A stretch of DNA of 64,000 nt from Agriterribacter humi (GTDB taxonomy: Bacteria > Bacteroidota > Bacteroidia > Chitinophagales > Chitinophagaceae): contig NZ_VOHQ01000011.1 in the NCBI RefSeq assembly GCF_009192765.1, forward strand, positions 159,444-223,443, written 5' to 3'. Made by a program: the position numbers and the translations under genes. The notes under the pieces were generated by a model. It had not been told where the DNA came from. It made no database searches and saw nothing but the letters and a program-made list of their open reading frames with translations. Position 1 is the first letter of the stretch. The number at the start of each line of letters is the position of its first letter. Positions 23,598 to 39,700 of this stretch are shown piece after piece.

Positions 23598-23670
23598 GAT
23601 TCCGTAGCTCAGCTGGTAGAGCAATACACTTTTAATGTATGGGTCCTGGGTTCGAGTCCCAGCGGGATCA
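23598..23670 (+). tRNA. tRNA-Lys (anticodon TTT)
   Basis: 73 nt with a complete cloverleaf: acceptor GATTCCG with CGGGATC (one G-T pair), D-loop AGCTCAGCTGGTAGAGC, anticodon stem ATACA/TGTAT with loop CTTTTAA, T-arm ending GGGTTCGAGTCCC, discriminator A; CCA is not encoded. Its last 16 bases are the left copy of the 17-bp direct repeat that bounds the mobile element 23655-39050, and the insertion leaves the tRNA intact. Confidence 0.97.
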
Positions 23671-23671
23671 C
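23655..23671 (+). repeat. Left attachment repeat (attL) within tRNA-Lys
   Basis: AGTCCCAGCGGGATCAC, covering the T-arm 3' strand and acceptor 3' strand of the tRNA plus one base. The same 17 bases recur at 39034-39050. Confidence 0.9.
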
Positions 23672-24654: not shown

Positions 24655-24695
24655 CAATTTGAAAAAAGCGGTTATTATTGTACATTTATGTAATC

Positions 24696-25016
24696 ATGGC
24701 AAAGTCAAAAAATATTGGAATCGGACTGAAACCCAATCTTGATAAAGGGTTGTTTTGGGATTGGCGCTATGATGAAATCGATTGGCAAAAATCTTATCGA
24801 AGCGTCATTGAGAAGGTGCTGGAACGTGGAACAATGGAAGAATGGGAAGAAATAATTCGCTTTTATGGCAAACCAAGAATTATTACTGCTTTAAAAGAAG
24901 AAATCAAGTTTCTGCCTGATTATATTATTAATGCTGTAAGCAGCTATTTTAACATTAGAAAGGAAGAAATGGCATGTTACGTAAGGAAGCAGTTGAGAAA
25001 GGGACAGTGGATATAA
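24696..25016 (+). CDS. Small protein preceding AbiEii toxin, probable antitoxin (DUF6922-like)
   Basis: 106 residues from the ATG at 24696 (MAKSKNIGIGLKPNLDKGLF); a TTG at 24678 is an alternative. Features: FWDWRYDEIDWQKSYRSVIE, then RGTMEEWEEIIRFYGKPRII and a C-terminal FNIRKEEMACYVRKQLRKG. It resembles the short proteins with a WDxxxxxxDW motif that accompany nucleotidyltransferase toxins in Bacteroidota. Its 3' end overlaps the toxin gene by 43 bp in another frame, so the two are translationally coupled. No winged-helix of the classic AbiEi type is visible. Confidence 0.7.
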   Translation: MAKSKNIGIGLKPNLDKGLFWDWRYDEIDWQKSYRSVIEKVLERGTMEEWEEIIRFYGKPRIITALKEEIKFLPDYIINAVSSYFNIRKEEMACYVRKQLRKGQWI

Positions 25017-25678
25017 TTAATAAATTAATGGCAGATGAAAAACTCATGTCATTTAGTTTAGTGGGTGGAACAGCGCTCGCATTAAAGATTGGGCATAGAA
25101 AATCATTAGATATAGACCTTTTTACCGCTACAGATTTCAACTCGCAGGAAATTTCCAGTCACCTAACTACTAATTATAATGTAACACGTATTCAGACAAT
25201 TACTAACGGAGTATTCTGTCTAATAGATGGAGTTAAGCTTGACCTGATTACTCACAAATACCCATTGCTGGAAGACCTGGAAACAGTTGAAGGTATACGT
25301 ATGGTATCCTTAAAGGATATAGGAGCCATGAAATTAAATGCCATCTATAATAATGGTACCCGCCTAAAAGATTTTGTAGACATTTATGCCTTACTGGAAA
25401 CCTTCCCTTTAAAAGAATTATTACAGGCAAGTGAAAAAAAATATCCTGAGAATAATATTGCAATGGTAAAAAATGCTTTACTGCATCATGAGGATATTGA
25501 CTTTACTGTGCCTATTGACTATGTAGGTAAAGAAATTAAATGGACTTCTATAACCCAGCGTTTGCAACAATCTTTTCACGATCCGCAAAAAATCTTCAAT
25601 AAACTGCCGGCCTTAACCCGGGAATTATTAGAAAAAAAACAGCGTAAGGAACAAAAACGCAAAGGCCCCCGACTTTAA
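24974..25678 (+). CDS. AbiEii/AbiGii-family nucleotidyltransferase toxin
   Basis: 234 residues with the minimal nucleotidyltransferase signature: LVGGTALALKIGHRKSLDID (GG-T at 31-33, catalytic D46 and D48), a third acidic strand GVKLDLITHKYPLL, then MVSLKDIGAMKLNAIYNNGT and KDFVDIYALLETFP. AbiEii-type proteins are the toxin half of type IV toxin-antitoxin and phage-abortive-infection systems and transfer nucleotides to RNA, in known cases tRNA. Here it is cargo of an element sitting in a tRNA gene. The upstream small gene overlaps it and is the likely antitoxin. The C-terminal tail is strongly basic. Confidence 0.88.
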   Translation: MLRKEAVEKGTVDIINKLMADEKLMSFSLVGGTALALKIGHRKSLDIDLFTATDFNSQEISSHLTTNYNVTRIQTITNGVFCLIDGVKLDLITHKYPLLEDLETVEGIRMVSLKDIGAMKLNAIYNNGTRLKDFVDIYALLETFPLKELLQASEKKYPENNIAMVKNALLHHEDIDFTVPIDYVGKEIKWTSITQRLQQSFHDPQKIFNKLPALTRELLEKKQRKEQKRKGPRL

Positions 25679-26159: not shown

Positions 26160-27113
26160 ATGTTTAATTGCGAGAGTATGAAAAAGCTATCATGCAGGGA
26201 AGCCCGGCAAATTGACCTGGTGGAATATCTTGCTGCATTAGGCCATCAGCCAAAAAATATCAGGAACCAGGATTATTGGTATTGTTCACCATTTCGTGAC
26301 GAAAAAACGCCCTCTTTTAAAGTCAACAGAGCCCGCAGTATCTGGTATGATTTCGGTGAAGGAAAAGGAGGGGATATCATTGACTTTGGAGTAGAGTATT
26401 TCAGCTGTTCAGTAAGTGAACTACTGGAAGGATTATCGAAAAAGTCATTATCTCTCAATTTTTCTTTTCACTCGCCTGCCTTTGCTGGTGAAAAGAAAGA
26501 ACCCGGCTACGGCAAGATCATCATCCTTAAGGATCGAGCCCTTGGGGCACCACCCCTGGTTCAATATCTTCAAAAAAGATGTATTCCAAAGGAAATTGCA
26601 GCGCAGTATTGCCGAGAAATAGATTTTGAACTCTATGGCAAAAAATTTTCTGCTATTGGATTTGCCAATGATAAAGGAGGGTTTGAATTAAGAAATGAGC
26701 ATTTCAAAGCAGGCAGTTCTCCCAAAGCCATCACTTTTTTGGTCCAGGGAGGCAAAGAGCTAACTGTGTTTGAAGGATTTTTTGATTTCCTTTCTTTCCA
26801 GACTTTATACAAAAACAATCCCACTATCCCAACAAATATTCTGGTACTTAATTCCCTTTCTTTTTTTCACCAGGCAAAAGACCTGATGGATAAACACCAA
26901 AGGGTACACCTGTACTTAGACCGCAACAAGCAGGGAATAGAGTTTACCCGGCAAGCACTACTATGGGATGAAAAAAAATATAAAGACCTGAGTACCTCAT
27001 TTGCGCAAGGGCAGGATATGAATGACTGGCTTATTGAAAAAAGCTCACTTGTAGACTCGGGGCTTATGACAGAAAATCTCAGGTACCGCCACCGAAAAGG
27101 CAGAAGCATCTGA
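26160..27113 (+). CDS. Toprim/CHC2-like DNA primase of the mobile element
   Basis: 317 residues; an ATG at 26178 is also possible. The N-terminal part matches the CHC2 zinc-ribbon fold of element-borne primases: DYWYCSPFRDEKTPSFKVNR, IWYDFGEGKGGDIIDFG, though most zinc-binding cysteines are absent. The C-terminal Toprim part has the Glu motif LTVFEGFFDFLSFQTLY and the Asp motif RVHLYLDRNKQGIEFT. It would prime replication of the circular or single-stranded form during transfer. It lies upstream of the mobilization operon on the same strand. Confidence 0.85.
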   Translation: MFNCESMKKLSCREARQIDLVEYLAALGHQPKNIRNQDYWYCSPFRDEKTPSFKVNRARSIWYDFGEGKGGDIIDFGVEYFSCSVSELLEGLSKKSLSLNFSFHSPAFAGEKKEPGYGKIIILKDRALGAPPLVQYLQKRCIPKEIAAQYCREIDFELYGKKFSAIGFANDKGGFELRNEHFKAGSSPKAITFLVQGGKELTVFEGFFDFLSFQTLYKNNPTIPTNILVLNSLSFFHQAKDLMDKHQRVHLYLDRNKQGIEFTRQALLWDEKKYKDLSTSFAQGQDMNDWLIEKSSLVDSGLMTENLRYRHRKGRSI

Positions 27114-27743: not shown

Positions 27744-28106
27744 ATGAGGCGTATGGAACAGATGAATGTCAAAAGATCAATGGGCGGACGCCCCTTAAAA
27801 GCCGTAAGAAAAGATATCAGGATAAGTGTTCGCTTTAACCGCCAGGAGTATTTTATCCTGAAGGAAAGGGCTGGTTCAGCAGGTGTAAAGCCATCTGTTT
27901 TTATCAGGCAGGCTGCCATCAAGGCAAAAATCACCGGCAGACTTTCTACAGAAGAAGTGCAATTGATCCGCCAGCTTGCCGGCATGGCTACCAATATCAA
28001 CCAGGTAGCAAGAGCATGTCACAGGGAGGGACTCTTTGAAGCTATGCGGTATTTTGAGGAGTACAGAAAAGCGCTTGATCACGTAATGCAAAAATTAAGG
28101 TCATGA
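27744..28106 (+). CDS. mobC: MobC-family relaxosome accessory protein
   Basis: 120 residues. The N-terminal ribbon-helix-helix-like part contains IRISVRFNRQEYFILKERAG and PSVFIRQAAIKAKITGR; the C-terminal MobC signature is IRQLAGMATNINQVARACHR. MobC proteins bind near oriT and assist strand opening for the relaxase. The gene overlaps the relaxase start by 4 bp (ATGA), so the two are co-translated. Confidence 0.9.
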   Translation: MRRMEQMNVKRSMGGRPLKAVRKDIRISVRFNRQEYFILKERAGSAGVKPSVFIRQAAIKAKITGRLSTEEVQLIRQLAGMATNINQVARACHREGLFEAMRYFEEYRKALDHVMQKLRS

Positions 28107-29086
28107 TCAGTAAGCATCTTACGGCAAACTCTTTCTATCATACCTGCCGCTATGTTACCATTAAACCCGGCGCAGAACTACTGGTTGCAAAAGGGGTAAG
28201 AGCTTATGATTTTAAACTGATGGCGCAGGATTTTGCAATACAACAGGCACTCAGACCGGAAAAAAAGCAGGCTTGTATGCATGCCATTCTCAGTTTTTAT
28301 CCGGGAGAAACGCTATCGGATGAAAAAATGAAAGCGGTAGCAAAAGAATATTTAAGCAAACTGAATGTCGTAAATACCCAATATGCCATCACTAAACATA
28401 CCGACAAAGCACATATTCATTTACACATTGTTGCCAATATGGTAAACAATGAAGGGAGACCAATCAGTGATAGCTGGATCGGACTAAGAGGGAAGAAAAT
28501 AGCGCAGGAGCTTACATTGAAGCATCAGCTTATGCAGGCAATAGATAAGAATCTAAGGCTTACTCACCTGGAATCGCTGAATGAATATGAAGCGACAAAG
28601 TACAGGATCTATATGGCTATCTCAGAACTACTCCCCAAATGTAAAAACATGGAAGAGCTGAAAACCCGGCTCGGAAAACGTGGCATTCTAACAGAATACA
28701 AATACAAAGGACAGAGCCTTCAAAAACAGGGTATCAGTTTTAAGATGGGTGAGTATCGTTTTAAAGGCAGTAAAATAGACCGGAGGTTCTCCTATAACTT
28801 TCTTGAAAAAACGCTGGCTTTGCAGCAAAAGCAAGTGTTACAACAAACAAAACCGGAAAGCATAAATACGCCGTTCCAAAAACCTGGAAGTGCTTTCCAA
28901 AAAGAAAATACTCCTTATCCATCCAGGGAACATGACATTGGTTTTGGAAGTGAAATACAGAAAGCTGCTTCAGATCTATGGAAATCATTAACCGACCCTG
29001 TGGGAGAAGGTGGATCCTTACCTAAAGAATTGCGGGAAGAACAAAGAAGGAGAAAGCAGCGCAAAACATTGCGAAGATGGCCATGA
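28103..29086 (+). CDS. Relaxase / mobilization nuclease
   Basis: 327 residues. The relaxase domain has an N-terminal Tyr region (FYHTCRYVTI) and the metal-binding His cluster HTDKAHIHLHIVANMVNNEG (H99, H104, H106, H108), the HxH triad of MOB_P/MOB_B-type nucleases. It nicks oriT, stays on the 5' end of the transferred strand and guides it to a helper's secretion channel. The C-terminal 130 residues are basic and less conserved. It is shorter than self-transmissible ICE relaxases, as expected for a mobilizable element. Confidence 0.9.
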   Translation: MISKHLTANSFYHTCRYVTIKPGAELLVAKGVRAYDFKLMAQDFAIQQALRPEKKQACMHAILSFYPGETLSDEKMKAVAKEYLSKLNVVNTQYAITKHTDKAHIHLHIVANMVNNEGRPISDSWIGLRGKKIAQELTLKHQLMQAIDKNLRLTHLESLNEYEATKYRIYMAISELLPKCKNMEELKTRLGKRGILTEYKYKGQSLQKQGISFKMGEYRFKGSKIDRRFSYNFLEKTLALQQKQVLQQTKPESINTPFQKPGSAFQKENTPYPSREHDIGFGSEIQKAASDLWKSLTDPVGEGGSLPKELREEQRRRKQRKTLRRWP

Positions 29087-29117
29087 TAAAACCATTGATC
29101 AATTTATAACATACGGT

Positions 29118-29723
29118 ATGAATAGTGAAGCAGATAAGGGCAGCCACGCTTTTGTGGAAGTAGCCATCCACAAAATGGAAAAGCAGGACAAAAGAATAGA
29201 GCAGATCGAAGCATTAATCCACAAACAGTTGGAGGCTGGTGCTGAAATAAAACAACTGACCAGCGCCATGGAGTCGCTGGATGAACACCTGCATAACGAA
29301 CCCATTTCTGAAGACAGGATATCAGCACTAACGATGAAGATGGATATGCTGATCAATAAACTTGCCACAGCGCCTGCTAATAAAGTATTGCATCACCACC
29401 ATGTACCGGGAATTATCTGGGGAGTAATACTGCTGGCAATTATACTTTGCATGGTATGTGCGGGCTGGCTCTATACCTACAGAAAGTTAGACGATTTTAT
29501 TGCTAACGATACCAGGTACCGGGCACTCCGGCTGGATACAGCTCTACAACCGCTTCAACAATACCTGGATCTTGTAGATTCTGTCTACGCCACAAATTCC
29601 AGCATGCGTGATGAGGTAATAAAAAAAGAACAGGAATACCAGGACAATTTCTACCGGCTACAAAAAGCATTACGGTTGAGAGGGGAGGCGGGAAAGTTGG
29701 AGAAGGAGGCCGGGAAGAAGTAA
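29118..29723 (+). CDS. Membrane-anchored coiled-coil protein of the mob operon
   Basis: 201 residues from ATG 29118, just after the relaxase stop; an upstream in-frame start at 29010 would overlap the relaxase. Order: acidic coiled coil (about 10-85), His-rich linker, membrane segment (about 96-116, IIWGVILLAIILCMVCAGWL), then a second coiled coil (about 120-200). The topology resembles the small membrane proteins that follow relaxases in Bacteroidota mobilizable elements and may tether the relaxosome to the membrane. The family is not identified with certainty. Confidence 0.65.
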   Translation: MNSEADKGSHAFVEVAIHKMEKQDKRIEQIEALIHKQLEAGAEIKQLTSAMESLDEHLHNEPISEDRISALTMKMDMLINKLATAPANKVLHHHHVPGIIWGVILLAIILCMVCAGWLYTYRKLDDFIANDTRYRALRLDTALQPLQQYLDLVDSVYATNSSMRDEVIKKEQEYQDNFYRLQKALRLRGEAGKLEKEAGKK

Positions 29724-30362
29724 AGATGCTTATTTTAGAAGATTTAAAATAGCTCGCATGAAAATTATAATAATTGACTGCCTAATTTACCAGGGAATCC
29801 ATTTGTGGATGATGGTCCAAAGACAATTCGATCTTCTGAGTACCTTGTAGCACCGGATATGACAAAAAATAAGTAGACAAGACTATTGCGTGTACTATAG
29901 CAGCAGTTATCTTCGCATTGGTTTTTCATAGGATATTGGATTTAAAACGGGGAGCATGTCTATGCACCCTTTTTTTATGGCTGGCCCATTTTATATTATG
30001 AAGCGCTCCCTATGCAAAATCATGTTGTTATCTACCAAATACTAAATAAATGGTCATTATTACAAAATAGTCTTGCTTTCAAGCCTGTTAATTTATAACT
30101 TGTAAACTAGTTTTTCAACCTTGTTCTCACCAAACCCTGTGGCTGAGCAGGCGAAAGCATGTAAACATCTGCCAGGCTCATCAATAATTTGACCAAAATA
30201 TTGAACATAAAATTTACGATTTTTCAAAATAGCAGAACGACATATTGTAAATATATTTAATTTTCATTGGCGCACTCAACAATTTCCAAAAGCGAATTGA
30301 AGGATATTGAGAATCAATACGGAAGAAAAAATAAGTAGTGCGTCTTATATACAAATACTACT
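29724..30362. other. Gap between mob operon and cassette array
   Basis: No convincing gene in 639 bp. It holds a repeat-associated terminator (29915-29977) and, at its right end, a possible half attachment site for the array: ACTCAAC (30274-30280) fits the RYYYAAC core and GTTATTG (30363-30369) the GTTRRRY core, 96 bp apart, but the arms between them do not pair well. It may be a decayed attC or an attI-like site. Confidence 0.45.
29915..29977 (+). terminator. Terminator with repeated 38-bp leader
   Basis: A GGGAGCAT / ATGCACCC hairpin followed by TTTTTTT ends the mob operon. Its left flank, 29915-29952, is identical over 38 bases to the reverse complement of 54277-54314, which leads into another hairpin plus T-run behind fbp. 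Confidence 0.65.
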
Positions 30363-30963
30363 GTTATTGGAAATTGCTTGCAGCCCTTCAAGTGTTCAGG
30401 AGCCGGTTGCCCGCCCTGGGGGTGGACTATCAAGAAGCGGCGTTGGCTCAATTGGGAATCCAGGAAGAATGCCGGACTATTTTTTGGGACGATGTTGAAA
30501 GATTCAGTCAGGTCAACCGTTCGGAGCCGGCTGGTTGAAGCCGCCTTCAGGACAGACGGGGACGAACGGTTGACCGAAGTTAGAGGATTAAAAATTAAAT
30601 ATCCGTTTATAAGCGTTTAAGGTCGGCTAAAGACGGTAAAAAAATAGCCGGACATTATAAAAGTTAGACAATGAGACAACGCCGCTTTACAGACTAATAG
30701 AACAGGGCGGTACAAAGACGACCACTTCGTAAATCACCCATTTAACGAAATGGTCATCTTTCAACCGGCTCCATGAACGGGAAGGGGCAGGCTGCAATCA
30801 ACTACGTTGCATCAGGACGTAAGCAGTCTATAGAGACTGATAAAAATAAAAGGGTATGATTATTACTGATGCAACTTCCAATAACATGGTATTTGCGCAA
30901 TGCCGCTTTTAACATACTGTAGATTCGAAGTTGATTCTCGCGTCACTACGCAAATACCTGCAC
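30363..30963 (+). repeat. Cassette 1, first copy of an exact 601-bp tandem duplication
   Basis: Compared line by line with 30964-31564, I found no difference. It ends in a compact attC-like site. The only open frames are short (about 50-65 codons), lack a good start and run through the attC, so the unit may be non-coding; several strong hairpins support an RNA product (30511-30839). It is GC-richer than the neighbouring cassettes. Confidence 0.9.
30511..30839 (+). ncRNA. Candidate structured RNA in duplicated cassette
   Basis: Consecutive strong stems: GGTCAACCGTTCG (30511-30523) with CGAACGGTTGACC (30563-30575), 13 bp perfect; GTCGGCTA (30622-30629) with TAGCCGGAC (30645-30653), one bulge; GACCAcTTCGT (30720-30730) with ACGAAaTGGTC (30745-30755); and CAGTCT/AGACTG around an ATAG tetraloop (30824-30839). 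Nothing in the stretch looks like a gene. I do not recognise the RNA class. The same RNA occurs at +601 bp in the second copy. Confidence 0.45.
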
Positions 30964-30970
30964 GTTATTG
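30879..30970 (+). repeat. attC-like site 1 (92 bp)
   Basis: CAATAAC (30879-30885) to GTTATTG (30964-30970), with paired inner arms GGTATTTGCGcA (from 30888) and TACGCAAATACC (to about 30958). The size is within the classical attC range. Confidence 0.85.
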
Positions 30971-31564
30971 GAAATTGCTTGCAGCCCTTCAAGTGTTCAG
31001 GAGCCGGTTGCCCGCCCTGGGGGTGGACTATCAAGAAGCGGCGTTGGCTCAATTGGGAATCCAGGAAGAATGCCGGACTATTTTTTGGGACGATGTTGAA
31101 AGATTCAGTCAGGTCAACCGTTCGGAGCCGGCTGGTTGAAGCCGCCTTCAGGACAGACGGGGACGAACGGTTGACCGAAGTTAGAGGATTAAAAATTAAA
31201 TATCCGTTTATAAGCGTTTAAGGTCGGCTAAAGACGGTAAAAAAATAGCCGGACATTATAAAAGTTAGACAATGAGACAACGCCGCTTTACAGACTAATA
31301 GAACAGGGCGGTACAAAGACGACCACTTCGTAAATCACCCATTTAACGAAATGGTCATCTTTCAACCGGCTCCATGAACGGGAAGGGGCAGGCTGCAATC
31401 AACTACGTTGCATCAGGACGTAAGCAGTCTATAGAGACTGATAAAAATAAAAGGGTATGATTATTACTGATGCAACTTCCAATAACATGGTATTTGCGCA
31501 ATGCCGCTTTTAACATACTGTAGATTCGAAGTTGATTCTCGCGTCACTACGCAAATACCTGCAC
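30964..31564 (+). repeat. Cassette 2, second copy of the 601-bp duplication
   Basis: Identical to 30363-30963 as far as I can read, including the hairpin-rich segment (31112-31440) and the attC. The break points of the duplication coincide exactly with the cassette core GTT, so the duplication is a whole cassette. Confidence 0.9.
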
Positions 31565-31571
31565 GTTGCAC
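31480..31571 (+). repeat. attC-like site 2 (92 bp)
   Basis: Copy of site 1, but its last 7 bases are GTTGCAC, contributed by the next cassette, as expected when a different cassette is joined at the core. Confidence 0.85.
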
Positions 31572-32250
31572 GCCACTTCCCGGACAACCCTTTGCGGCAG
31601 GACACAGGTCACACTGCCCGATAAAATATAGTTTTGTTCCTGCAGACACAGGACAATAGCGAAGCAGCTTTTTTACAGGCAATATTTTTACGGGCAGTTC
31701 CCGGCAGACTTTAACGAAAATGGCAGAGGCTCAACTATAGTAATGCTCTCGACTATGCCAGCGCTGCCCGGACACGATTTGTATAGGCAGGTTGTTGTGG
31801 TTCTTTTTGCAGGTTGCGGCAGACTGTTTCTATAGCTCTTTTATTGATCATGTTTTGTTTGACATTGAAAAATAGTAAGTCCCTGGCACTTAGACCCGAC
31901 GCACGACTGAATTCAGCAGGCTTGGCTCCTATTGTTTTTTTATTATGTTTTGCTGTAGACCAATGACATCCAGCCAGTCCTTATACTATAGTTCTGTTGA
32001 CCCTGCGCACAGGGAACTTTACTAATCTGCCATTTTTTCTGCCGCAGGCCGATTGCGGCGTGCAACAGGCGGTTTTGCACAAGTGCGGCTGGACTGAAGC
32101 CTGCCAGGCTAATTGCAGATCCGGGCATCAGTTATCGGCTGACGATGTTCAAACAGAAATTATCTGAATACAATATTTTTTACTTTAAATTGGCAGTACG
32201 GTATTTCAGCAGACGAATTTCAAATTCCACACCTGCGCAAAGCCGCTATC
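31565..32250 (+). other. Cassette 3, no recognisable gene
   Basis: A 686-bp unit that starts GTTGCACGCC and whose attC opens with the reverse complement GGCGTGCAAC. No open frame of convincing length or codon use exists on either strand. There are repeats of a GGCAG motif on both strands, but no clear fold. It could be non-coding or decayed. Confidence 0.6.
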
Positions 32251-32257
32251 GTTATAT
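32060..32257 (+). repeat. attC-like site 3 (198 bp)
   Basis: GTGCAAC (32060-32066) to GTTATAT (32251-32257). Left arm AGGCGGTTTTGCACAAG pairs imperfectly with right arm CTGCGCAAAGCCGCTAT. The middle is closely related to sites 4, 5 and the partial site 9. Confidence 0.85.
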
Positions 32258-32674
32258 GCAACTTGTTCAGAACAGCGTCATCAACAATTCTATTCGGCTT
32301 GGGTAATGGGATAGCTTAAAATTATTTCCTAACCAGTGGCTACAGCAATTCTATTCAGCAACTATTTTCAACGCCGCTTTCATTTCACGGCAGACAGAAA
32401 ACTTGTGACAACAACGCTGTTCCATTTGTTCAAACATTTCTCGCTGTTTCGGTTACAAAAAGTACTCTTAATTCAATCAAGTATGCATATAACAGGCGGT
32501 TTGGCTCAAGCGGGGCAAGACGTAGTACAATCAGCTAAGTGCAATTCCGGGCTTCGGTTACCGGCTGACGACATCATAACAGAAATCATCTAAATACAAT
32601 ATTTTTTACTTTAAATTGGCATCCGGTATTTCGGCAGACGGATTTCAAATATCCCACCTGCGCCAAGCCGTACC
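32251..32674 (+). other. Cassette 4, short unit related to cassette 9
   Basis: 424 bp. The first 40 bases are nearly identical to those of unit 9 (37222), and parts further in also match. A frame starting with GTG at 32336 has a diverged counterpart at 37307 (both contain VLIQSSMHITG-like residues), but this runs into the attC and has no clear start, so a protein is doubtful. Confidence 0.55.
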
Positions 32675-32681
32675 GTTATGC
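32487..32681 (+). repeat. attC-like site 4 (195 bp)
   Basis: ATATAAC (32487-32493) to GTTATGC (32675-32681). Left arm AGGCGGTTTGGCTCAAG pairs imperfectly with right arm CTGCGCCAAGCCGTACC. Confidence 0.88.
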
Positions 32682-32704
32682 GGCATTTTTTAAGAAAACA
32701 CAAC

Positions 32705-33367
32705 ATGACATTTAAATCAGACATCGAAGAAATCATAGCTTCAATTCATAAGGTATATCAGGACGATGAATTGGCATTCTTAGCGCTAACGAGTAAAATT
32801 GAATTACCACTTCGTGATAAAATAGCTTTTCAATTACACAAGAAATATCAAGATAAGTATCTCGTTTGCCGTGAGTGGAGACCAAGAGTTAATAATTCGC
32901 GTAACCGAATTGACATAGCAATTATAGACAAAACTGACTCTAAAGTATTGTGCCTAATTGAATGTAAAGCTAAATCCGTTGTTCGTTATGAAGAACGATC
33001 TACAGGACATTTGGCAAATGACTTGATCAAGATCCGCAACTTAACTAATGACGATAGCGTTGAACTATATTATATATATTTTAATAATGTGCTCAATAGC
33101 GAAAAACACTTTGAGGACATATATTGTAATTCGGTTAAGTACATTTCGGACTTAAACAATAGTATTAGTAAAAAGAATTTATTAAATAATAGTAAAAGTA
33201 TTTGGGAGAAGCATTTAAGTCGGCTTGACCTAAATGCAGAGAAGTCGAAACAAATTATAATTAATGCAGGAACGTATTTCGGTTATGTTGTTTTTATCGA
33301 AACATATATTTATGGACCCGTAAATAGACATGAAATCAAAAACTTAACTTATCAGTCCATTTTGTAA
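32705..33367 (+). CDS. PD-(D/E)XK nuclease-like cassette protein
   Basis: 220 residues from ATG 32705 (MTFKSDIEEIIASIHKVYQD); an ATG at 32678 lies inside the attachment core and is less likely. The central segment NRIDIAIIDKTDSKVLCLIE followed by CKAK is a good match to the PD-(D/E)XK core (Asp, then E-x-K in a beta strand), as in restriction-like and type I restriction enzyme R-subunit N-terminal domains. No methyltransferase or partner is in the cassette. It is AT-rich with codon use unlike the chromosome. Function could be defence or DNA repair, but this is inference. Confidence 0.65.
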   Translation: MTFKSDIEEIIASIHKVYQDDELAFLALTSKIELPLRDKIAFQLHKKYQDKYLVCREWRPRVNNSRNRIDIAIIDKTDSKVLCLIECKAKSVVRYEERSTGHLANDLIKIRNLTNDDSVELYYIYFNNVLNSEKHFEDIYCNSVKYISDLNNSISKKNLLNNSKSIWEKHLSRLDLNAEKSKQIIINAGTYFGYVVFIETYIYGPVNRHEIKNLTYQSIL

Positions 33368-33398
33368 TAAATGTCTTAGGTATCGTTAAAAAACGACC

Positions 33399-33593
33399 GC
33401 ATAACAGGCGGTTTGGCTCAAGTGGGGCAAGACATAGTACAATCGGCTAATTACAATTCCTGGCTTCAGCTACCGGCTGACGACAGCATAACAGAAATCA
33501 TCTAAATACAGTATTTTTTACTTTAAATTGGCATACGGTATTTCAGCAGACGGATTTCAAATATCCCACCTGCGCCAAGCCGTACCGTTAGTG
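33399..33593 (+). repeat. attC-like site 5 (195 bp)
   Basis: GCATAAC (33399-33405) to GTTAGTG (33587-33593). Very similar to site 4 throughout, which implies cassettes 4 and 5 share a common source array. Confidence 0.88.
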
Positions 33594-33631
33594 GCAATTA
33601 CTCACAGACATTCCTAAATTTAAAAGCTTAA

Positions 33632-34237
33632 GTGACACGACTTATTTTTCTGTATATCTTCTTAAATATTATCAACTGTTCTTTTGGGCAGTTACAAAGA
33701 ATAGAAGGATCACCAAGGCAGTTAACAAAAAAGGAAGAAAAAATAGAGGCAATAAATCACAATTGTATATATCAAAATAAATCTACTGCTAGACAAAGAC
33801 TCGAATTATTTCCGTTTAAAAAGGCCTATAAAATACAAATAGTATCATTTGACAAACCGGACTTGATTATCTCAGGAGGTGAAATTCCCATAAAAGATAA
33901 AGTCGTAGATTACTCGAAACTAAAAGAATTCAAAACATTAAGCAATACTGAAATTGACACACTTACTGACATTCTGTATAATCACGTTTATAAGGGACCT
34001 TTTTTGACATCTTTCAAAAGCAAGTGTTATAATCCCAGGAATGCAATTTTGTTTATAGACTCTTCAGGACAGGTGTTTGCTTTTATAGAACTCTGTTTTG
34101 AATGCAATGGCTTCAGGACGGACTCTGAAGACGTTCAAACTGGTGACTTTTGCGATCAAAAATACGAACTGTTAAGGAGCTTCTTTGTACGACTTGGAAT
34201 AGCTTTTGGAACTAACTATGAGTCTTATGAAAAGTAA
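33632..34237 (+). CDS. Secreted protein of unknown function (cassette 6)
   Basis: 201 residues starting with GTG at 33632; no other start exists near the N-terminus. A signal peptide is clear (LIFLYIFLNIINCSFGQ). The mature part has four or more cysteines: CIY, KCYNPRNAILFIDSSGQVFA, FIELCFECNGFRTD, GDFCDQKY. The segment NAILFIDSSGQVFAFIELCF looks like a beta hairpin core. I do not recognise the family. AT-rich and lone in its cassette, with its own attC about 5 bp after the stop codon. Confidence 0.75.
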   Translation: MTRLIFLYIFLNIINCSFGQLQRIEGSPRQLTKKEEKIEAINHNCIYQNKSTARQRLELFPFKKAYKIQIVSFDKPDLIISGGEIPIKDKVVDYSKLKEFKTLSNTEIDTLTDILYNHVYKGPFLTSFKSKCYNPRNAILFIDSSGQVFAFIELCFECNGFRTDSEDVQTGDFCDQKYELLRSFFVRLGIAFGTNYESYEK

Positions 34238-34241
34238 CAGC

Positions 34242-34437
34242 CACTAACATGCAGGTTGGCAAAAATGCTGGCAGACGGAAAACGTTCGTCAACTTTTGGA
34301 GCTTTGTTCTGCTATAGTTCCGGCGAATAACGCCGAGCACTAGAATAAACAATGAGCTTATGTATCTTTAATCAGCAGCGGCACCGGGCAGACGGAACTC
34401 AGAATTCCGCAACATCGCCAATGCTTTTACGTTGGCT
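34242..34437 (+). repeat. attC-like site 6 (196 bp)
   Basis: CACTAAC (34242-34248) to GTTGGCT (34431-34437). Inner arms GGTTGGCAAAAATGC and GCCAATGC pair only partly. Confidence 0.8.
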
Positions 34438-34486
34438 GTCATTGTAAAACGACACGCTACTAACGACAACTTTTAGACATTGAACA

Positions 34487-35314
34487 ATGCAAATGCGACT
34501 TCAAAACATTGAGCCACACCCTTTGCTTAAAAGCTACATTGATAAAATGTGGCTGTTTGAAAGCAGCGGCAAAATGCCTGTTGAAGATTTAAAGTTAGTT
34601 GTGCCTAACGGACGTTGTAAAATATCGATAGCTTTTCGAAATGGTATAGTTGCATCGGTAAACGGAAAAACATTTACATCAAAAGAAGACAATATCAGTT
34701 TGACAGGATTGGTAGATGTTCCGGTTATTTTGGATGTTGAAGATGATATTATTACAGGGACTATTGTAGTTGAATTTAATCCACGGGGTGCGTATCGCTT
34801 TTTTCAAGTTTCCCTCAATGATATTAAAAACCAAATTCATCCACTAAAAGATATTTTGGGAACTGTTTCCCAATATTTAGAAGTTCAAATTTCGAATGTT
34901 GGAACCGTTAGTGAGAAAATAGATTTGCTACAAAAGTTTTTACTGAAACAACTCATTCTGACTGCGCAGGATTTAGTTTTTGAATATTGCGTAGAAAAAA
35001 TTGTTTCATCAAAGGGAAAAGTTACTGTTAAAGAGCTGGAGAAGAAGACAGAATATTCCAGCCGATGGCTAAATAAGAAATTCGCTGTCAACTTAGGTGT
35101 CAGCCCAAAAAGTCTATCTACCATTATTCGTTTCAATCAATATTATAATGCAGTTGCGAACAACAATGAGATGGATTTTATGCAAAACGCTTTTTACGAC
35201 TACTATTACGACCAATCTCATTTTTTAAAAGAGTTTAAAAGGTTTACAGGGCTATCTCATTCGGGCTTTGAAAACACTTCAAATGATTTTGGTAAGTTGT
35301 TCTATAAAGAATAG
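34487..35314 (+). CDS. AraC-family transcriptional regulator (cassette 7, gene 1)
   Basis: 275 residues. The N-terminal half matches the DUF6597-type sensor of AraC regulators (PHPLLKSYIDKMWLFESSGK, VVPNGRCKISIAFRNG, VVEFNPRGAYRFFQV). The C-terminal half is a double helix-turn-helix: VTVKELEKKTEYSSRWLNKK, LGVSPKSLSTIIRFNQYYNA, YDYYYDQSHFLKEFKRFTGL. It shares one cassette with an SRPBCC gene and an EthD-like gene downstream (gaps 70 and 41 bp) and probably controls them. A regulator plus two targets in a single cassette is uncommon. Confidence 0.88.
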   Translation: MQMRLQNIEPHPLLKSYIDKMWLFESSGKMPVEDLKLVVPNGRCKISIAFRNGIVASVNGKTFTSKEDNISLTGLVDVPVILDVEDDIITGTIVVEFNPRGAYRFFQVSLNDIKNQIHPLKDILGTVSQYLEVQISNVGTVSEKIDLLQKFLLKQLILTAQDLVFEYCVEKIVSSKGKVTVKELEKKTEYSSRWLNKKFAVNLGVSPKSLSTIIRFNQYYNAVANNNEMDFMQNAFYDYYYDQSHFLKEFKRFTGLSHSGFENTSNDFGKLFYKE

Positions 35315-35384
35315 CACTTCCGATTTTTACAACACAAGATGAAAAGTTGTTCCGTTCTTTGCATAGTCATTAAAAAAGCAAAAA

Positions 35385-35834
35385 ATGGAAAAGAAAAATT
35401 ACCACAGAACAATTACAGTAAATGCTTCCGCTGCAGAAGCAATAAAAAAAATCGGTCAAGTAAATCATTGGTGGAAGCATGATTTTACTGGAAGTGCTGA
35501 AAAGCAGAATGACATGTTTACAGTTCCGTTTGGGGAACTGAATGGAGAGAAATCCTTTGTTGATTTTGTCGTAAGCGAAATTATCCCAAACAAAAAAGTG
35601 GTATGGAAAGTAACTAACTGTAATTTGCCTTGGTTTAAAGACAAAACCGAATGGAACAATACCGAAGTTGTTTTTGAAATCACATCTGCTAACAACAAGG
35701 TGAATATTGATTTTACTCACATCGGATTAGTTCCGGGTATTCAGTGTTACGAAGTTTGCGAAAAAGGTTGGGATGGACATGTCACAAAAAGTTTGGTAAG
35801 TTTCATGAATGATGGAAAAGGAAATCCACAGTAG
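35385..35834 (+). CDS. SRPBCC (START/AHSA1-like) domain protein (cassette 7, gene 2)
   Basis: 149 residues of the AHSA1/SRPBCC ligand-binding fold: RTITVNASAAEAIKKIGQVN, HWWKHDFTGSAEKQNDMFT, WFKDKTEWNNTEVVFEITSA, VNIDFTHIGLVPGIQCYEVC and the C-terminal helix GWDGHVTKSLVSFMNDG. Such domains bind small hydrophobic ligands. It is cytoplasmic and co-directional with the AraC-type gene. Confidence 0.85.
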   Translation: MEKKNYHRTITVNASAAEAIKKIGQVNHWWKHDFTGSAEKQNDMFTVPFGELNGEKSFVDFVVSEIIPNKKVVWKVTNCNLPWFKDKTEWNNTEVVFEITSANNKVNIDFTHIGLVPGIQCYEVCEKGWDGHVTKSLVSFMNDGKGNPQ

Positions 35835-35875
35835 TATCCAGAAGAAAAATTAAACTCAAAACAATTTTTTTAACA

Positions 35876-36211
35876 ATGGACAACAATAGCTTAAAACCGA
35901 TTTTTTGTGCAACTGTTCTTTATCCAAACAAAGAAGGTGCGACATTTGACTTTGAACTTTATGCAAATGAATTAATTCCAGAATATGTAGAAATACTTGG
36001 CGACAACGTTTTAAAATTTGAAGTACGTAAAGGTTTGACAACACCAGGACAGCCAGCACCAAACTTTATTTGCACTGCTAACATTTGGGTTTCATCAGGT
36101 GAAAAATTTGGAGCATCAATGGCTGACCCAAGAATGAAAAGTTTAATGGCAAAAATTTCTGCCTTTACAGACATTCAACCACTGCGACAGTTTGACCAAG
36201 TTATAGCTTGA
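35876..36211 (+). CDS. EthD-like dimeric alpha/beta-barrel protein (cassette 7, gene 3)
   Basis: 111 residues: IFCATVLYPNKEGATFDFEL, a middle helix region and a C-terminal ANIWVSSGEKFGASMADPRM, which is the EthD pattern (a long first strand, then a W- and F-containing second half). The family forms dimeric ferredoxin-like barrels and is often found near oxidative degradation genes. It ends only 19 bp before its attC. The role is unknown. Confidence 0.75.
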   Translation: MDNNSLKPIFCATVLYPNKEGATFDFELYANELIPEYVEILGDNVLKFEVRKGLTTPGQPAPNFICTANIWVSSGEKFGASMADPRMKSLMAKISAFTDIQPLRQFDQVIA

Positions 36212-36229
36212 GGTGGAAGAACAACGAAC

Positions 36230-36430
36230 AGCCAACAAGCGCATTGGCTATAGCTGGGTTGACGTGCATCTCATCAACTTTTTGTTCGTCATTGAGCAGT
36301 AGTCCCGGGCAGAAAATACTCTATTGAGCTACAGAATAAAAATCTCAACTTTTTGTTCGTTTACTGTACTTTTGTTCGGGCAGAAAAATCGTTGAATGCC
36401 CAGCCATCGCCAATGCTCCGGACGTTAGGC
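36230..36430 (+). repeat. attC-like site 7 (201 bp)
   Basis: AGCCAAC (36230-36236) to GTTAGGC (36424-36430). The inner arms GCATTGGC (36241-36248) and GCCAATGC (36409-36416) pair perfectly, and TAGCTGGG / CCCAGCCA continue the stem. Confidence 0.9.
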
Positions 36431-36441
36431 GCAAGTTTTTT

Positions 36442-37035
36442 ATGACACAACACGCAAGCTATATTCATCTTGTAGTTGACAAAGCTATTAACTTTTCAAA
36501 TGAGTATTTGCGAGGTTTGCAGGAGCCAATTTATCGGGCTCCAGATAACATGATTGATTATTCAAAAGTTTCACCTGGACATGAAATTGTATTTTGGAAG
36601 GCTATTTACGCGAACATTTCTGAACTGGCGTTTAAAGTATACGAGGAAAAGATAGGATATCAACTGCCCCCCACTTACAAGGACTTCCCATCATATAAAT
36701 ATTTTATTTCTCTAAATTTCGGACACGAAGTAGAATTCTTTCGACATACACAATCTTGGGCTCACGATTATTACGGAAATATTTTAAAGACCGGGGTAGA
36801 AGCAACTTTGGGAAATGGACTAATTCCGTTTGCGCAAACAAATGACCGGGTTATATTGTGCTTTGACACAAATGACTCAAATAAGGAGAATGAATATGGA
36901 ATTGTTTCTTATGTTCCTGAATTTGGTGAAAAGGAGTATCCTTCGAGACAGGGACAATATACATTCATCGACTTGATTTTCGATTGTGAAAGAAATTTAG
37001 ACAGGTGGAGGGAAATGAAGCAAACCAGCGCCTAA
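36442..37035 (+). CDS. SMI1/KNR4 (SUKH)-like protein (cassette 8)
   Basis: 197 residues. The SUKH-like features are LPPTYKDFPSYKYFISLNFG, LGNGLIPFAQTNDRVILCFD and VSYVPEFGEKEYPSRQGQYT with a final helix DLIFDCERNLDRWREMK. SUKH proteins act mainly as immunity proteins against nuclease toxins or as phage-defence partners. No toxin is in the cassette, so it could be an orphan immunity gene. The stop codon lies inside the attC core GCCTAAC. Match to the superfamily is by pattern only. Confidence 0.55.
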   Translation: MTQHASYIHLVVDKAINFSNEYLRGLQEPIYRAPDNMIDYSKVSPGHEIVFWKAIYANISELAFKVYEEKIGYQLPPTYKDFPSYKYFISLNFGHEVEFFRHTQSWAHDYYGNILKTGVEATLGNGLIPFAQTNDRVILCFDTNDSNKENEYGIVSYVPEFGEKEYPSRQGQYTFIDLIFDCERNLDRWREMKQTSA

Positions 37036-37228
37036 CATTGGTATTGCCAATAGTGGGGCTGGACATTGTAGCAATGAGCAGCGGTAATTCTGCTGTACTG
37101 CAGTTTGGAGCTTGACGAATAAAGCCCAACTTAAGTTCTTAATATTTAACTTTATCAAAAAGCTAGGCAGCAGTTCCGGGCGTACGAATATAAAATGCCA
37201 CACCATCGGCAATACCTGCCTGTTATAT
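37030..37228 (+). repeat. attC-like site 8 (199 bp)
   Basis: GCCTAAC (37030-37036) to GTTATAT (37222-37228). GGTATTGCC (37040-37048) and GGCAATACC (37208-37216) pair perfectly. Confidence 0.9.
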
Positions 37229-37545
37229 GCAACTTGTTCAGAACAGCGTCATCAACAATTCTGTTGAGCTTCGGTAAAGGGATACCTTAAAATTATTATC
37301 TAAACAGTGGCTTCAGGAACTCTATTCAGCAACTATCTTCAAAGCTGCTTTATTTTTTTAAAACATTTTTCGCTGTTGCAATTACAAACAGCAGTCTTAA
37401 TTCAATCAAGTATGCATATAACAGGCTTGGCTCAAGTGGGGCGGGACATAGTACAATCGGCTAATTGCAAATCCAGGCTTTATATATCGGCAGACGTACA
37501 AACAATAAAAATTAATTTAAATACAGTATTGTTTATTTTAAATTA
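37222..37545 (+). other. Cassette 9, truncated, related to cassette 4
   Basis: Starts like cassette 4 and has the left half of the same attC type (ATATAAC at 37416-37422). Similarity to sites 4 and 5 continues to about 37545 and then stops; the right arm is missing. The tyrosine integrase gene ends at 37538 on the other strand, so the array end overlaps its last codons by about 8 bp. Confidence 0.75.
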
Positions 37546-38887
37546 TGCAAGTTAGCTTATCAGGCTTACGTGAAACGATTTCAATATCACCTCTTTGTTG
37601 CCATAGTTCCCTGATCTTCTGACCAGCTTCTTCAGGACTAATCCGGATATATTTATAGAAATCCCTGAGACTCTTATGCCCACTAATTTTCATGATTAGT
37701 TCAGCAGGTGTACCGGCTAAAAATTCATTGGTACAGAATGAGCGGCGGCAGGTGTGGGAGGTAATCCACAAATATTTTGGCTTGATGGTAATTATATCCT
37801 TGTTCCCTTTTTTGTGTGAAAATTTGATTGGCGTGTCAAAGCCTGCTAGTTTCCCAACTTCTTTAATGTGTCTATTAAACATTCCATTGCACACGTTGGG
37901 AATATTGAAGTTTAAGCGATTTGCCAAAATATCATTAGCCTCTTTGCGCAAGGGAATGACTACCCAATGATCGGACTTGCACTGCTTCTTGTATAACATC
38001 CCTTGTCTAACATCCTCTTTTCGGATTATGGAGAAATCAGAAAAACGTAAGCCTGTTAGACAACCTAAAACAAATAAATCACGGTATTTGATCAGATGCG
38101 GATGGCCGAATAAATCTAGTTGATAAATAACACTGATTTCATTCCATGTTAAATACACTGCATCGGTTTCTTCATCAAGTATTCTAAAATCTTCCAGGTT
38201 AATCGGCGGAATAATCTTCCGGCGCATCCGATTACGCAGAAAAATGCGCAACTGCTTTATCGTCTTTCCTACTGTGCTGATTCGGAAACCTTTTATAAGT
38301 TCTTTCCTGCGGCGTTGTACATGCTCATACATCATATACTCAACAAATTCTTCGTAGAAATTGAAATCAAAAGATTCAAAAGTAACTGGCTTTTTCCGGT
38401 GCGTTTCAAATGCCTTAAGTGTATCCCTCATATTCCTGTAAACATGGAGCATTTTAGGTGTTACCTGCTTTGTCTTAGACTTTATGTATTCGTCAATCTG
38501 GAAAAATACATCGAGATTGACTTTTGGGAGTTCAGCGTCCTTGGCCTTTTCTTCCAGGCTGGAGAGGTCAAGGTCAGGTTTAAATACTTTCTTAAGAAAT
38601 GCAAGCGGATCTGAAATTTCCTTTTTAGCCGCAAAAGTGAGAATATCTTCGACAATGCGGATGGCGTTCTTTAATTGCTCATTCAAGAATTCAGCGTTGC
38701 CATAATGGGCAGGCAGGTCGGCATTTATTCTTAGCCGTTTCAGGTTCCAGTAATTGGGAGGGACCGCAATGCCAGAATTCAGCAGGGTTCTTTTTGCAAG
38801 AGAATGGCAATACTGGATAAAAATAATGCTTGTACCATCTTTGCGTAACAATGCTTTTTTGCAAACGGGTTTGACAGGTAGTGACAT
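37538..38887 (-). CDS. Tyrosine site-specific integrase of the mobile element
   Basis: 449 residues of the Bacteroidota phage-integrase type: N-terminal arm-binding domain (1-120), SAM-like core-binding domain (about 125-225) and catalytic domain with R281 (CLTGLRFSD), H378 and R381 (HTCRR), H404 (SGHKS) and nucleophile Y413 (FYKYIR). It should catalyse integration into the tRNA-Lys 3' end. It lacks the additional alpha-2 segment expected between the HxxR-containing patch region motifs of IntI as far as I can judge, and its closest pattern is the ICE integrase group, not integron integrases. Its start codon touches the right 26-bp repeat. Confidence 0.93.
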   Translation of the reverse strand: MSLPVKPVCKKALLRKDGTSIIFIQYCHSLAKRTLLNSGIAVPPNYWNLKRLRINADLPAHYGNAEFLNEQLKNAIRIVEDILTFAAKKEISDPLAFLKKVFKPDLDLSSLEEKAKDAELPKVNLDVFFQIDEYIKSKTKQVTPKMLHVYRNMRDTLKAFETHRKKPVTFESFDFNFYEEFVEYMMYEHVQRRRKELIKGFRISTVGKTIKQLRIFLRNRMRRKIIPPINLEDFRILDEETDAVYLTWNEISVIYQLDLFGHPHLIKYRDLFVLGCLTGLRFSDFSIIRKEDVRQGMLYKKQCKSDHWVVIPLRKEANDILANRLNFNIPNVCNGMFNRHIKEVGKLAGFDTPIKFSHKKGNKDIITIKPKYLWITSHTCRRSFCTNEFLAGTPAELIMKISGHKSLRDFYKYIRISPEEAGQKIRELWQQRGDIEIVSRKPDKLTCII

Positions 38888-38912
38888 TTTACTCTATAAT
38901 TTACTCTATAAA
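38887..38912 (+). repeat. 26-bp terminal direct repeat, right copy
   Basis: Identical to 23712-23737 and overlapping the first base of the integrase start codon. Integrase bound here could repress its own promoter (inference). Confidence 0.65.
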
Positions 38913-39033
38913 AATGCTGTCAGGCAGAGTAAAGGTAATTCCTGAAAAGAAGGGGAGTTGTTATAGAGTATTGAAGATCAGGCCGTTGAAATAAGGCTGA
39001 ATAATTATAGGTAAAGTTGATAAGTGTGGTTAA

Positions 39034-39050
39034 AGTCCCAGCGGGATCAC
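39034..39050 (+). repeat. Right attachment repeat (attR)
   Basis: The 17 bases are identical to 23655-23671. The sequence after it is the original tRNA downstream region, starting with a terminator. Confidence 0.9.
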
Positions 39051-39052
39051 AG

Positions 39053-39094
39053 AAAGGGAGAAAATGAAATTTTTCATTTTCTCCCTTTGTTTTT
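39053..39094 (+). terminator. Strong terminator, probably the original one of tRNA-Lys
   Basis: A perfect stem of about 17 bp between 39053-39069 and 39072-39088 (AAAGGGAGAAAATGAAA and its complement) is followed by GTTTTT. It lies 3 bp past attR, exactly where the tRNA terminator would have been before insertion. Confidence 0.85.
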
Positions 39095-39160
39095 CAGTAA
39101 ACTTCTAATCATCAGATAAGAACAAAGCATTTAGGTGTATGTATTTCATCATTTATTTAC

Positions 39161-39700
39161 TCAGCAACCGCCTTTGCGGGGGACACGTTTAAAAATTACT
39201 TTACTATCCCGTTCTGCATAGTCGCACGATACTATTGGGTATGCATACTTAGGCGCGTGCGATAGGTTACGGCTTCTTATAATTATTTTGTCGTTAACTT
39301 TCAGGCTATGCAATTGCTCAAGTTGAGACTTTTCCGGCTCAAATTTTACAATGTAATCGTCACCATTAATCCTCACCATCACTCCAAAACCTAATCTTGA
39401 GCCTGGCGGAAGAGAAAGAGAGGTTACAACTCCCTCCATATTGGTAGAATCTTTAATGTGCTTCCATATATTAGCTTCGGCGGCATGCACTTTTTTACCT
39501 TCGGGAGATGCTTCCCATTTTTTGTACTTTATACCAGCAGGGGTAGCCTCCCATCTTTTCACTTCGGCTTCCCTTTCAGCAGCAGAGAGTGGCTTTGGGG
39601 TTGGTGTTTTAGAAGTTTCATTTTTGATTTCGCGATTAGCGAATACCAGTCCGCTTACCACAACCAGCGGTAAGATCAGCGCATAAATAACTTTTTTCAT
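39161..39700 (-). CDS. Secreted protein of unknown function with C-terminal PRKGGC
   Basis: 179 residues from ATG 39700 (MKKVIYALILPLVVVSGLVFA, a signal peptide); 39724 is an alternative. A Pro/Lys-rich stretch (TSKTPTPKPLSAAEREAEVK) and two similar short motifs (WEATPAGIKYKKWEASPEGK) precede a beta-rich part (GFGVMVRINGDDYIVKFEPE, VNDKIIIRSRNLSHAPKYAY) that looks like a small barrel. It ends VPRKGGC. The upstream gene on the same strand (39911-40876) ends PRSGGC. I do not recognise the family. Confidence 0.8.
   Translation of the reverse strand: MKKVIYALILPLVVVSGLVFANREIKNETSKTPTPKPLSAAEREAEVKRWEATPAGIKYKKWEASPEGKKVHAAEANIWKHIKDSTNMEGVVTSLSLPPGSRLGFGVMVRINGDDYIVKFEPEKSQLEQLHSLKVNDKIIIRSRNLSHAPKYAYPIVSCDYAERDSKVIFKRVPRKGGC

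What the first reader, a model, noticed from the sequence alone, without database searches (positions are those of the whole stretch)
30363..37545. Integron-type gene cassette array inside a Bacteroidota mobilizable element, without IntI
Seen directly: nine head-to-tail units. In each, the first 7 bases (GTTRRRY-like) are the exact reverse complement of the 7-mer that opens that unit's own 3' palindrome; 9 of 9 match. The complementarity continues for several more bases (for example GTTGCACGCC with GGCGTGCAAC). Inner arms pair as well (GCATTGGC/GCCAATGC; GGTATTGCC/GGCAATACC). This is the diagnostic build of integron cassettes and attC sites. Known integrons are mainly proteobacterial; an array carried by a tRNA-inserted mobilizable element of a Bacteroidota, with no IntI, would be a new vehicle for cassettes. 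Six of the sites have a uniform 195-201 bp length, longer than most attC sites.
Basis: partly seen in the sequence, partly recalled or inferred. Interest (0 to 1): 0.95.

Follow-up and report, generated by a model that had tools for sequence, protein, structure and literature searches.

The report
Integron with a non-IntI integrase
A mobilizable element in a Bacteroidota genome carries nine gene cassettes and an attachment site but appears to have lost its integrase gene; a related platform with about 36 cassettes lies elsewhere in the same genome beside an integrase that lacks the segment by which integron integrases are defined, so cassette capture is likely run in this bacterial family by a different kind of enzyme.

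Summary
Observation confirmed: window 30363-37.5k holds nine head-to-tail integron-type cassettes (9 of 9 heads complement their own R'') inside a 15.4-kb mobilizable element in tRNA-Lys. Before cassette 1 lie an attI-like site and the last codons of a mostly missing integrase gene. Contig C14 of the same genome has an intact platform: a 396-aa tyrosine recombinase, a 112-bp attI region, about 36 cassettes. A 601-bp cassette is 100% identical at four places in this genome and 96% identical, with exactly the same borders, between other cassettes in another genus. The integrase is not IntI: no IntI-specific insert, below the IntI cut-off, outside the IntI clade in the best tree; instead an 80-aa N-terminal domain whose predicted fold weakly matches the SMARCAL1 HARP domain. 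It occurs in 53 of 147 genomes of the host's family; IntI in 0 of those 147, though in 105 of 395 of the phylum. Strict cassette chains follow it in 12 of 26 loci examined (one doubtful), 7 with two or more links. Recombination is untested, and descent from an IntI ancestor is not excluded. A new integron variant that searches requiring the IntI domain would miss.

The parts
23598..23671 (+). tRNA-Lys; its 3' end (23655-23671) is the left att repeat of the element
39034..39050 (+). right att repeat (17 bp)
26160..27113 (+). CHC2/Toprim primase-like protein of the element
27744..28106 (+). MobC/NikA-like mobilization protein
28103..29086 (+). MobA/VirD2-type relaxase; DNA homology to two related elements (L181, L182) ends at about 29.73 kb, before the integron segment
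30063..30160 (+). stretch resembling the DNA upstream of the C14 integrase gene (69%)
30237..30250 (+). remnant of the last integrase codons (stop included); about 1.1 kb of the gene is missing relative to C14
30253..30362 (+). attI-like site, 82% identical to the attI region next to the C14 integrase
30363..30963 (+). cassette 1, 601 bp, no long ORF; attC 30879-30970
30964..31564 (+). cassette 2, identical to cassette 1; attC 31480-31571
31565..32250 (+). cassette 3, 686 bp, no long ORF; attC 32060-32257
32251..32674 (+). cassette 4, 424 bp, 96% identical to two C14 cassettes; attC 32487-32681
32675..33586 (+). cassette 5, 229-aa ORF with a weak, sub-threshold HSDR_N_2 match; attC 33399-33593
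33587..34430 (+). cassette 6, 201-aa ORF (GTG start) without Pfam match; attC 34242-34437 with an imperfect L pair
34431..36423 (+). cassette 7, three ORFs (DUF6597 with AraC-type HTH, AHSA1, sub-threshold EthD); attC 36230-36430
36424..37221 (+). cassette 8, SUKH-family ORF; attC 37030-37228
37222..37548 (+). cassette 9 with a truncated attC (R'' at 37416-37422, no L'/R'); its end overlaps the end of the element integrase ORF (37538)
37538..38887 (-). the element's own tyrosine integrase (Arm-DNA-bind_5, SAM_5), not the cassette integrase

Best explanation
The window array is an integron that has most likely lost its integrase gene by deletion, carried by a mobilizable element, and its cassettes are likely moved in trans by the non-IntI integrase encoded next to a second attI and about 36 cassettes on contig C14. 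The enzyme is a Xer-like tyrosine recombinase without the IntI-specific insert. Inferred: it would join a folded single-stranded attC (bottom strand) to double-stranded attI at the GTT of the cassette, as IntI does, and its N-terminal HARP-like domain would take over recognition of the folded site. Shown by sequence: attI copies, integrase remnant, attC folds, exact-border cassette copies, integrase next to arrays in several genera. Not shown: recombination, strand choice, role of the N-terminal domain, activity in trans.
For: C14 integrase followed by an attI region and cassettes. The 601-bp cassette is 100% identical over exactly 1-601 at four places: directly after both attI sites, in tandem in the window, and after another cassette at C14:6906; 96% identical at the same borders in 1 of 293 other family genomes, with unlike 500-bp flanks. 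C14 units 6 and 11 identical over 678 bp. Window attI 82% identical to the C14 attI and preceded by the last integrase codons. Strict cassette chains after the integrase in 12 of 26 loci examined (L016 doubtful: its head lies inside the integrase gene), two or more links in 7 of 26, against 0 of 106 non-array windows and 0 of 60 shuffles. No IntI insert in the query or in 47 of 47 readable homologs, nor in the 13 family rows added. TIGR02249 181 bits against a cut-off of 265. IntI in 0 of 147 family genomes against 53 of 147 with this integrase. HARP 4o66 is the top Foldseek match of the N-terminal domain, probability 0.99, E 0.016.
Confidence: 0.78

Rival explanations
1. The cassettes were assembled by a canonical IntI that is absent or lost, and the C14 recombinase next to the array is a bystander.
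For: Canonical IntI is common in the phylum (105 of 395); the attC architecture is close to the usual one.
Against: No match over the IntI cut-off in the own genome and 0 of 147 in the family, while the same recombinase family sits directly before arrays in several genera. Identical copies suggest recent movement.
Confidence: 0.07
2. Host XerC/XerD move the cassettes, as they do for CTX phage, and the neighbouring recombinase has another job.
For: Other Xer-like genes exist in the genome (C33 and C12); XerCD use a folded single strand in CTX integration (PMC4792948, passages).
Against: attI-like motif and array start about 100-200 bp after the recombinase stop in many of the loci with a chain.
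Confidence: 0.06
3. The window array was copied or swapped in by homologous recombination with the C14 array and is now inert.
For: Shared cassettes; the window copy has no integrase gene and a truncated last site.
Against: At the left edge identity steps from 82% (attI) to 100% exactly at the cassette border; the order of cassettes differs; the exact-border copy in another genus has unlike flanks.
Confidence: 0.15
4. The units are miniature transposable elements or repeats that only look like cassettes.
For: Many units have no long ORF and are repeated; the 601-bp unit is a large imperfect hairpin.
Against: 16 of 44 units have a long + strand ORF (at least 100 aa, ATG, half of the unit) and none a minus-strand ORF over 83 aa; head/R'' pairs differ from unit to unit and stay compensated; L''/L' pairs inside; attI at one end.
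Confidence: 0.02

Closest known systems
Integrons with IntI (class 1 and sedentary chromosomal integrons)
   Same: attI beside a tyrosine recombinase gene, head-to-tail cassettes with attC-type sites, cassette heads pairing with own R'', genes in one direction, copies at exact borders
   Different: integrase without the IntI-specific insert, outside the IntI clade in the best tree, with an extra N-terminal domain; integrase and cassettes point the same way; long L stems, no clear canonical extrahelical base
CALIN (attC cluster without integrase)
   Same: the window array has attC sites and no integrase gene beside it
   Different: it keeps an attI-like site and an integrase remnant, and a related platform is intact in the same genome
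XerC/XerD/XerA recombinases
   Same: closest solved structures and best profile scores; no insert
   Different: linked to attI and cassette arrays; N-terminal extension; the four Xer rows form another clade
SMARCAL1 HARP / XPB N-terminal domains
   Same: predicted fold of residues 1-83 resembles them
   Different: weak scores, other folds score as high; fused to a tyrosine recombinase, not to a helicase

Membership tests
integron | tandem cassettes with attC sites whose R'' pairs with the cassette head | tested here: met
   9 of 9 in the window (unit 9 with half a site); about 36 units on C14, the first 20 links strict
integron | attC folds on the bottom strand into R and L stems | tested here: met
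   44 of 44 sites; the R stem by construction
integron | extrahelical bases that select the bottom strand | tested here: inconclusive
   C.A mismatches or asymmetric loops, no single canonical base; bottom more stable in 30 of 44
integron | attI between integrase gene and first cassette | tested here: met
   112-bp region on C14 with an 82% copy in the window; recurring motif before the first cassette in relatives
integron | cassettes move as units | tested here: met
   comparative only: exact-border copies at four places and in one other genome of another genus
integron | integrase with the IntI-specific additional domain (I2 region) | tested here: not met
   about 40 residues missing against IntI4; absent in 47 of 47 readable homologs and in the 13 rows added, present in 21 of 21 IntI rows
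IntI (TIGR02249) | score over the curated cut-off of 265 bits | tested here: not met
   181.4 bits; positive control 105 of 395 genomes
IntI | lies in the IntI clade | tested here: inconclusive
   best tree: outside, IntI 16 rows 100/100; joining not rejected, AU p 0.15
integron | Pc promoter for the cassettes | not tested
   a TAnnTTTR motif precedes the first GTT in many relatives; that it is the Bacteroidota -7 box is recalled
integron | integrase catalyses attI x attC recombination | not testable with these tools
   needs an assay
mobilizable element | relaxase, mobilization protein, integrase and att repeats | tested here: met
HARP domain | fold of the domain | tested here: inconclusive

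The most novel reading that the evidence does not exclude
There is a second integron lineage whose integrases never had the IntI domain: Xer-like enzymes with a HARP-like head that recognises folded attC DNA, serving about a third of the genomes of one Bacteroidota family, with plain insert-less relatives beside arrays in Chryseobacterium, Alkaliphilus and Rhodopirellula. The IntI insert would then be a late addition in one lineage and not a condition for cassette recombination, and integron surveys have missed a whole class.
Probability: 0.6. Interest if true: 0.92.

Novelty: new variant of a known kind. Interest (0 to 1): 0.86.

Why it matters
The insert called I2 is described as not identified outside integron integrases and as fitted to the extrahelical bases of attC, and its acquisition by a Xer-like ancestor has been imagined as a step in the evolution of integrons (PMC4792948, passages). 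Integron surveys define IntI by the additional domain (PMC9668308, methods passage; PMC2426708, passage). Cassette platforms run by integrases without it would make the origin of integrons directly testable, would offer a natural comparison for how a recombinase handles a folded single strand, and would show a blind spot: such platforms would be recorded at best as attC clusters without integrase (inference). The window copy also shows such a platform as cargo of a mobilizable element.

Tried and rejected
Rfam: no match at E up to 1 in 29000-39500. NCBIfam: no family over its cut-off for the C14 integrase. A first scan of the 56 genome-contig loci for near-perfect L pairs gave few sites; the head-walk replaced it. 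Minus-strand runs of the walk also chain, because the sites are near-palindromes, so direction rests on attI and genes. No control was run for the settings. Related mobilizable elements: 7 elements of 5 genomes examined, none with an array after the relaxase; one isolated link in L184 is probably chance. The 601-bp cassette was not found in plasmids. Tree: of 87 rows aligned (L105 and L138 gave no readable ORF and never entered), ten were dropped before (L046, L048, L050, L056, L064 and five near-identical IntI rows), leaving 77; a further filter on filled columns dropped none. In one search, 48 of the 56 loci were used. For arrays, 13 of the 53 family genomes with the integrase were examined, chosen mostly for long contigs; six more regions asked for were not asked for again. 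Literature: nine searches on integrons and one on HARP; none of the listings shows a paper on such integrases or on integrons of Chitinophagaceae. The library holds open-licence papers only and no preprints; the 2016 IntegronFinder paper and the Messier and Roy paper were not held. IntegronFinder 2.0 reports In0 only in its earlier study and one complete integron (Salinibacter ruber) in Bacteroidetes (PMC9024848, passages). PMC9371921 was seen in passages only and said nothing on the fold.
Full report
OBSERVATION. The window array was read directly and walked with a rule: the first 10 bases of a unit must pair with its own R'', followed by a 9-bp L''/L' pair before the next GTT. The walk ran through units 1-5 and stopped at unit 6, where the L pair is imperfect; units 6-9 were placed by their R'' match. 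Starts: 30363, 30964, 31565, 32251, 32675, 33587, 34431, 36424, 37222. The 7-base match holds in 9 of 9; over 10 bases it is 10/10 in five and 9/10 in four. Sites 1-2 are 92 bp, sites 3-8 195-201 bp; unit 9 has R'' but no L'/R'. In its strict form the rule finds nothing in 106 windows outside arrays nor in 60 Markov-resampled copies of part of the C14 array; in loose form controls give one link in 51 and two links in 6 of 106, so only strict links or longer loose chains count (the strict threshold was set). Folding the bottom strand as in the excised circle gives R and L stems of at least 7 pairs in 44 of 44 sites of the window and C14, the R stem by construction; 37 of 44 have z below -2.

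SURROUNDINGS. The array lies in an element bounded by a 17-bp repeat of the tRNA-Lys end (23655-23671, 39034-39050) with a primase-like protein, MobC/NikA, relaxase and its own integrase at 37538-38887. Relaxase relatives were found in 16 of 294 family genomes, the own included. DNA homology of the mobilization part ends at about 29.73 kb (L181 and L182), before the integron segment; none of seven related elements examined has an array in 9 kb after the relaxase. So the integron looks like cargo of this one element.

THE INTACT PLATFORM. A search of the own genome with the integron-integrase family gave a below-cut-off match on contig C14. There a 396-aa tyrosine recombinase (L009:2662-3852) is followed after 112 bp by the same 601-bp cassette and then by further units, about 36 in all, to about C14:30.9 kb (the first 20 links are strict; the 37th link is weak). 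The 112-bp region has one other copy in the genome over its length, 82% identical, exactly in front of the window array. Before it the window keeps the last integrase codons, and further up a 98-bp stretch that resembles the DNA upstream of the C14 gene (69%); between them 76 bp stand where C14 has about 1.19 kb. The simplest reading is that the window platform lost its integrase gene by deletion.

MOVEMENT. The 601-bp cassette is 100% identical over exactly 1-601 at C14:3965, C14:6906 and twice in the window. At the window attI the identity steps from 82% to 100% at the cassette border. Of 294 family genomes searched, one besides the own has it (G562, another genus; only two candidates a genome were scored, so others may be missed): 96% identical, again over 1-601, preceded by the site of another cassette and followed by another cassette, with no similarity in 500-bp flanks. 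The automatic walk in G562 found two units and stopped before the 601-bp one; its neighbours were read by eye and by head/R'' matches. G562 has a relative of the integrase (54% over residues 104-387). Two 678-bp cassettes on C14 are identical, and window cassette 4 is 96% identical to two C14 cassettes. Sites related to these attC, some of them short fragments, occur on seven other contigs (C1, C2, C8, C12, C13, C32, C34).

DISTRIBUTION. The integrase matches at E up to 1e-60 in 53 of 147 genomes (40 of 100 genera) of the family; IntI over the cut-off in 0 of 147 (that run's own controls did not ring, but the same family model rang in 105 of 395 genomes of the phylum). The profile A1 at E up to 1e-100 matched 12 of 395 in the phylum, in seven families. 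The family is likely Chitinophagaceae: family contig G024:C57 has the length of L021, whose record is named Chitinophagaceae, and G059:C109 that of L015. Twenty-six loci were examined after the integrase: 13 of the 53 family genomes, chosen mostly for long contigs, and L012-L024. Twelve have at least one strict link (one, L016, doubtful because its head lies inside the integrase gene) and seven at least two (G068 24, C14 20, G080 7, G058 4, L021 3, G007 2, G045 2). Fourteen have none: seven of them hold under 2.4 kb after the integrase, seven hold 4 kb or more; of the latter G066 and G109 show loose chains of 5 and 4 links. A TAnnTTTR motif stands a few bases before the first GTT in many, another motif in G000-like loci. 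Outside the group, insert-less integrases without the N-terminal domain also stand next to chains: L039 Chryseobacterium (5 strict links, divergent), L055 Rhodopirellula (4 strict), L026 Alkaliphilus (6 links, the first 3 strict) (without its own control); the other 29 of 32 loci of that call have at most one strict link on either side.

MECHANISM. Shown: anatomy, exact-border copies, integrase remnant, linkage. Inferred: insertion at attI by the C14-type enzyme acting on a folded bottom strand, action in trans on the window array, recognition by the N-terminal domain. The attC sites have long L stems and C.A mismatches or asymmetric loops in place of a clear canonical extrahelical base, which would fit an enzyme without I2; that link is inference.

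NOVELTY. It works like an integron. By the usual definition, which needs the IntI domain, the integrase fails, so I file it as a new variant. Nine literature searches on integrons in an open-licence library listed no description of it; papers outside that library were not seen.

Noticed in passing
window 30363-30884 (cassette 1; also C14:3965, C14:6906): The 601-bp cassette without long ORF is a giant imperfect hairpin: -200.6 kcal/mol as RNA, z -8.3, 0 of 100 shuffles as good, both strands alike; no Rfam match; it sits first after both attI sites.
   Followed up: partly
L009 (C14) 7507-8184 and related units: A second cassette family of about 680 bp without long ORF (head GTTGCACGCC), seven diverged copies on C14, two of them identical.
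   Followed up: partly
G000 contigs C1, C2, C8, C12, C13, C32, C34: Dispersed attC-related sites or fragments outside the arrays, possibly off-target insertions.
   Followed up: no
L039, L044, L035 (Chryseobacterium), L026 (Alkaliphilus), L055 (Rhodopirellula): Insert-less integrases without the N-terminal domain beside cassette chains, divergent in Chryseobacterium; L044 and L035 have one strict link only.
   Followed up: partly
L030, L033, L067: Integrases of 587-617 aa related to the extended group.
   Followed up: no
395 Bacteroidota-phylum genomes: Canonical IntI over the cut-off in 105 of 395, more than the complete-genome survey quoted suggests for this phylum.
   Followed up: no
window 24678-25678: DUF6922 and AbiEii nucleotidyltransferase-like pair near the left end of the element, perhaps a toxin-antitoxin or abortive-infection module.
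   Followed up: no
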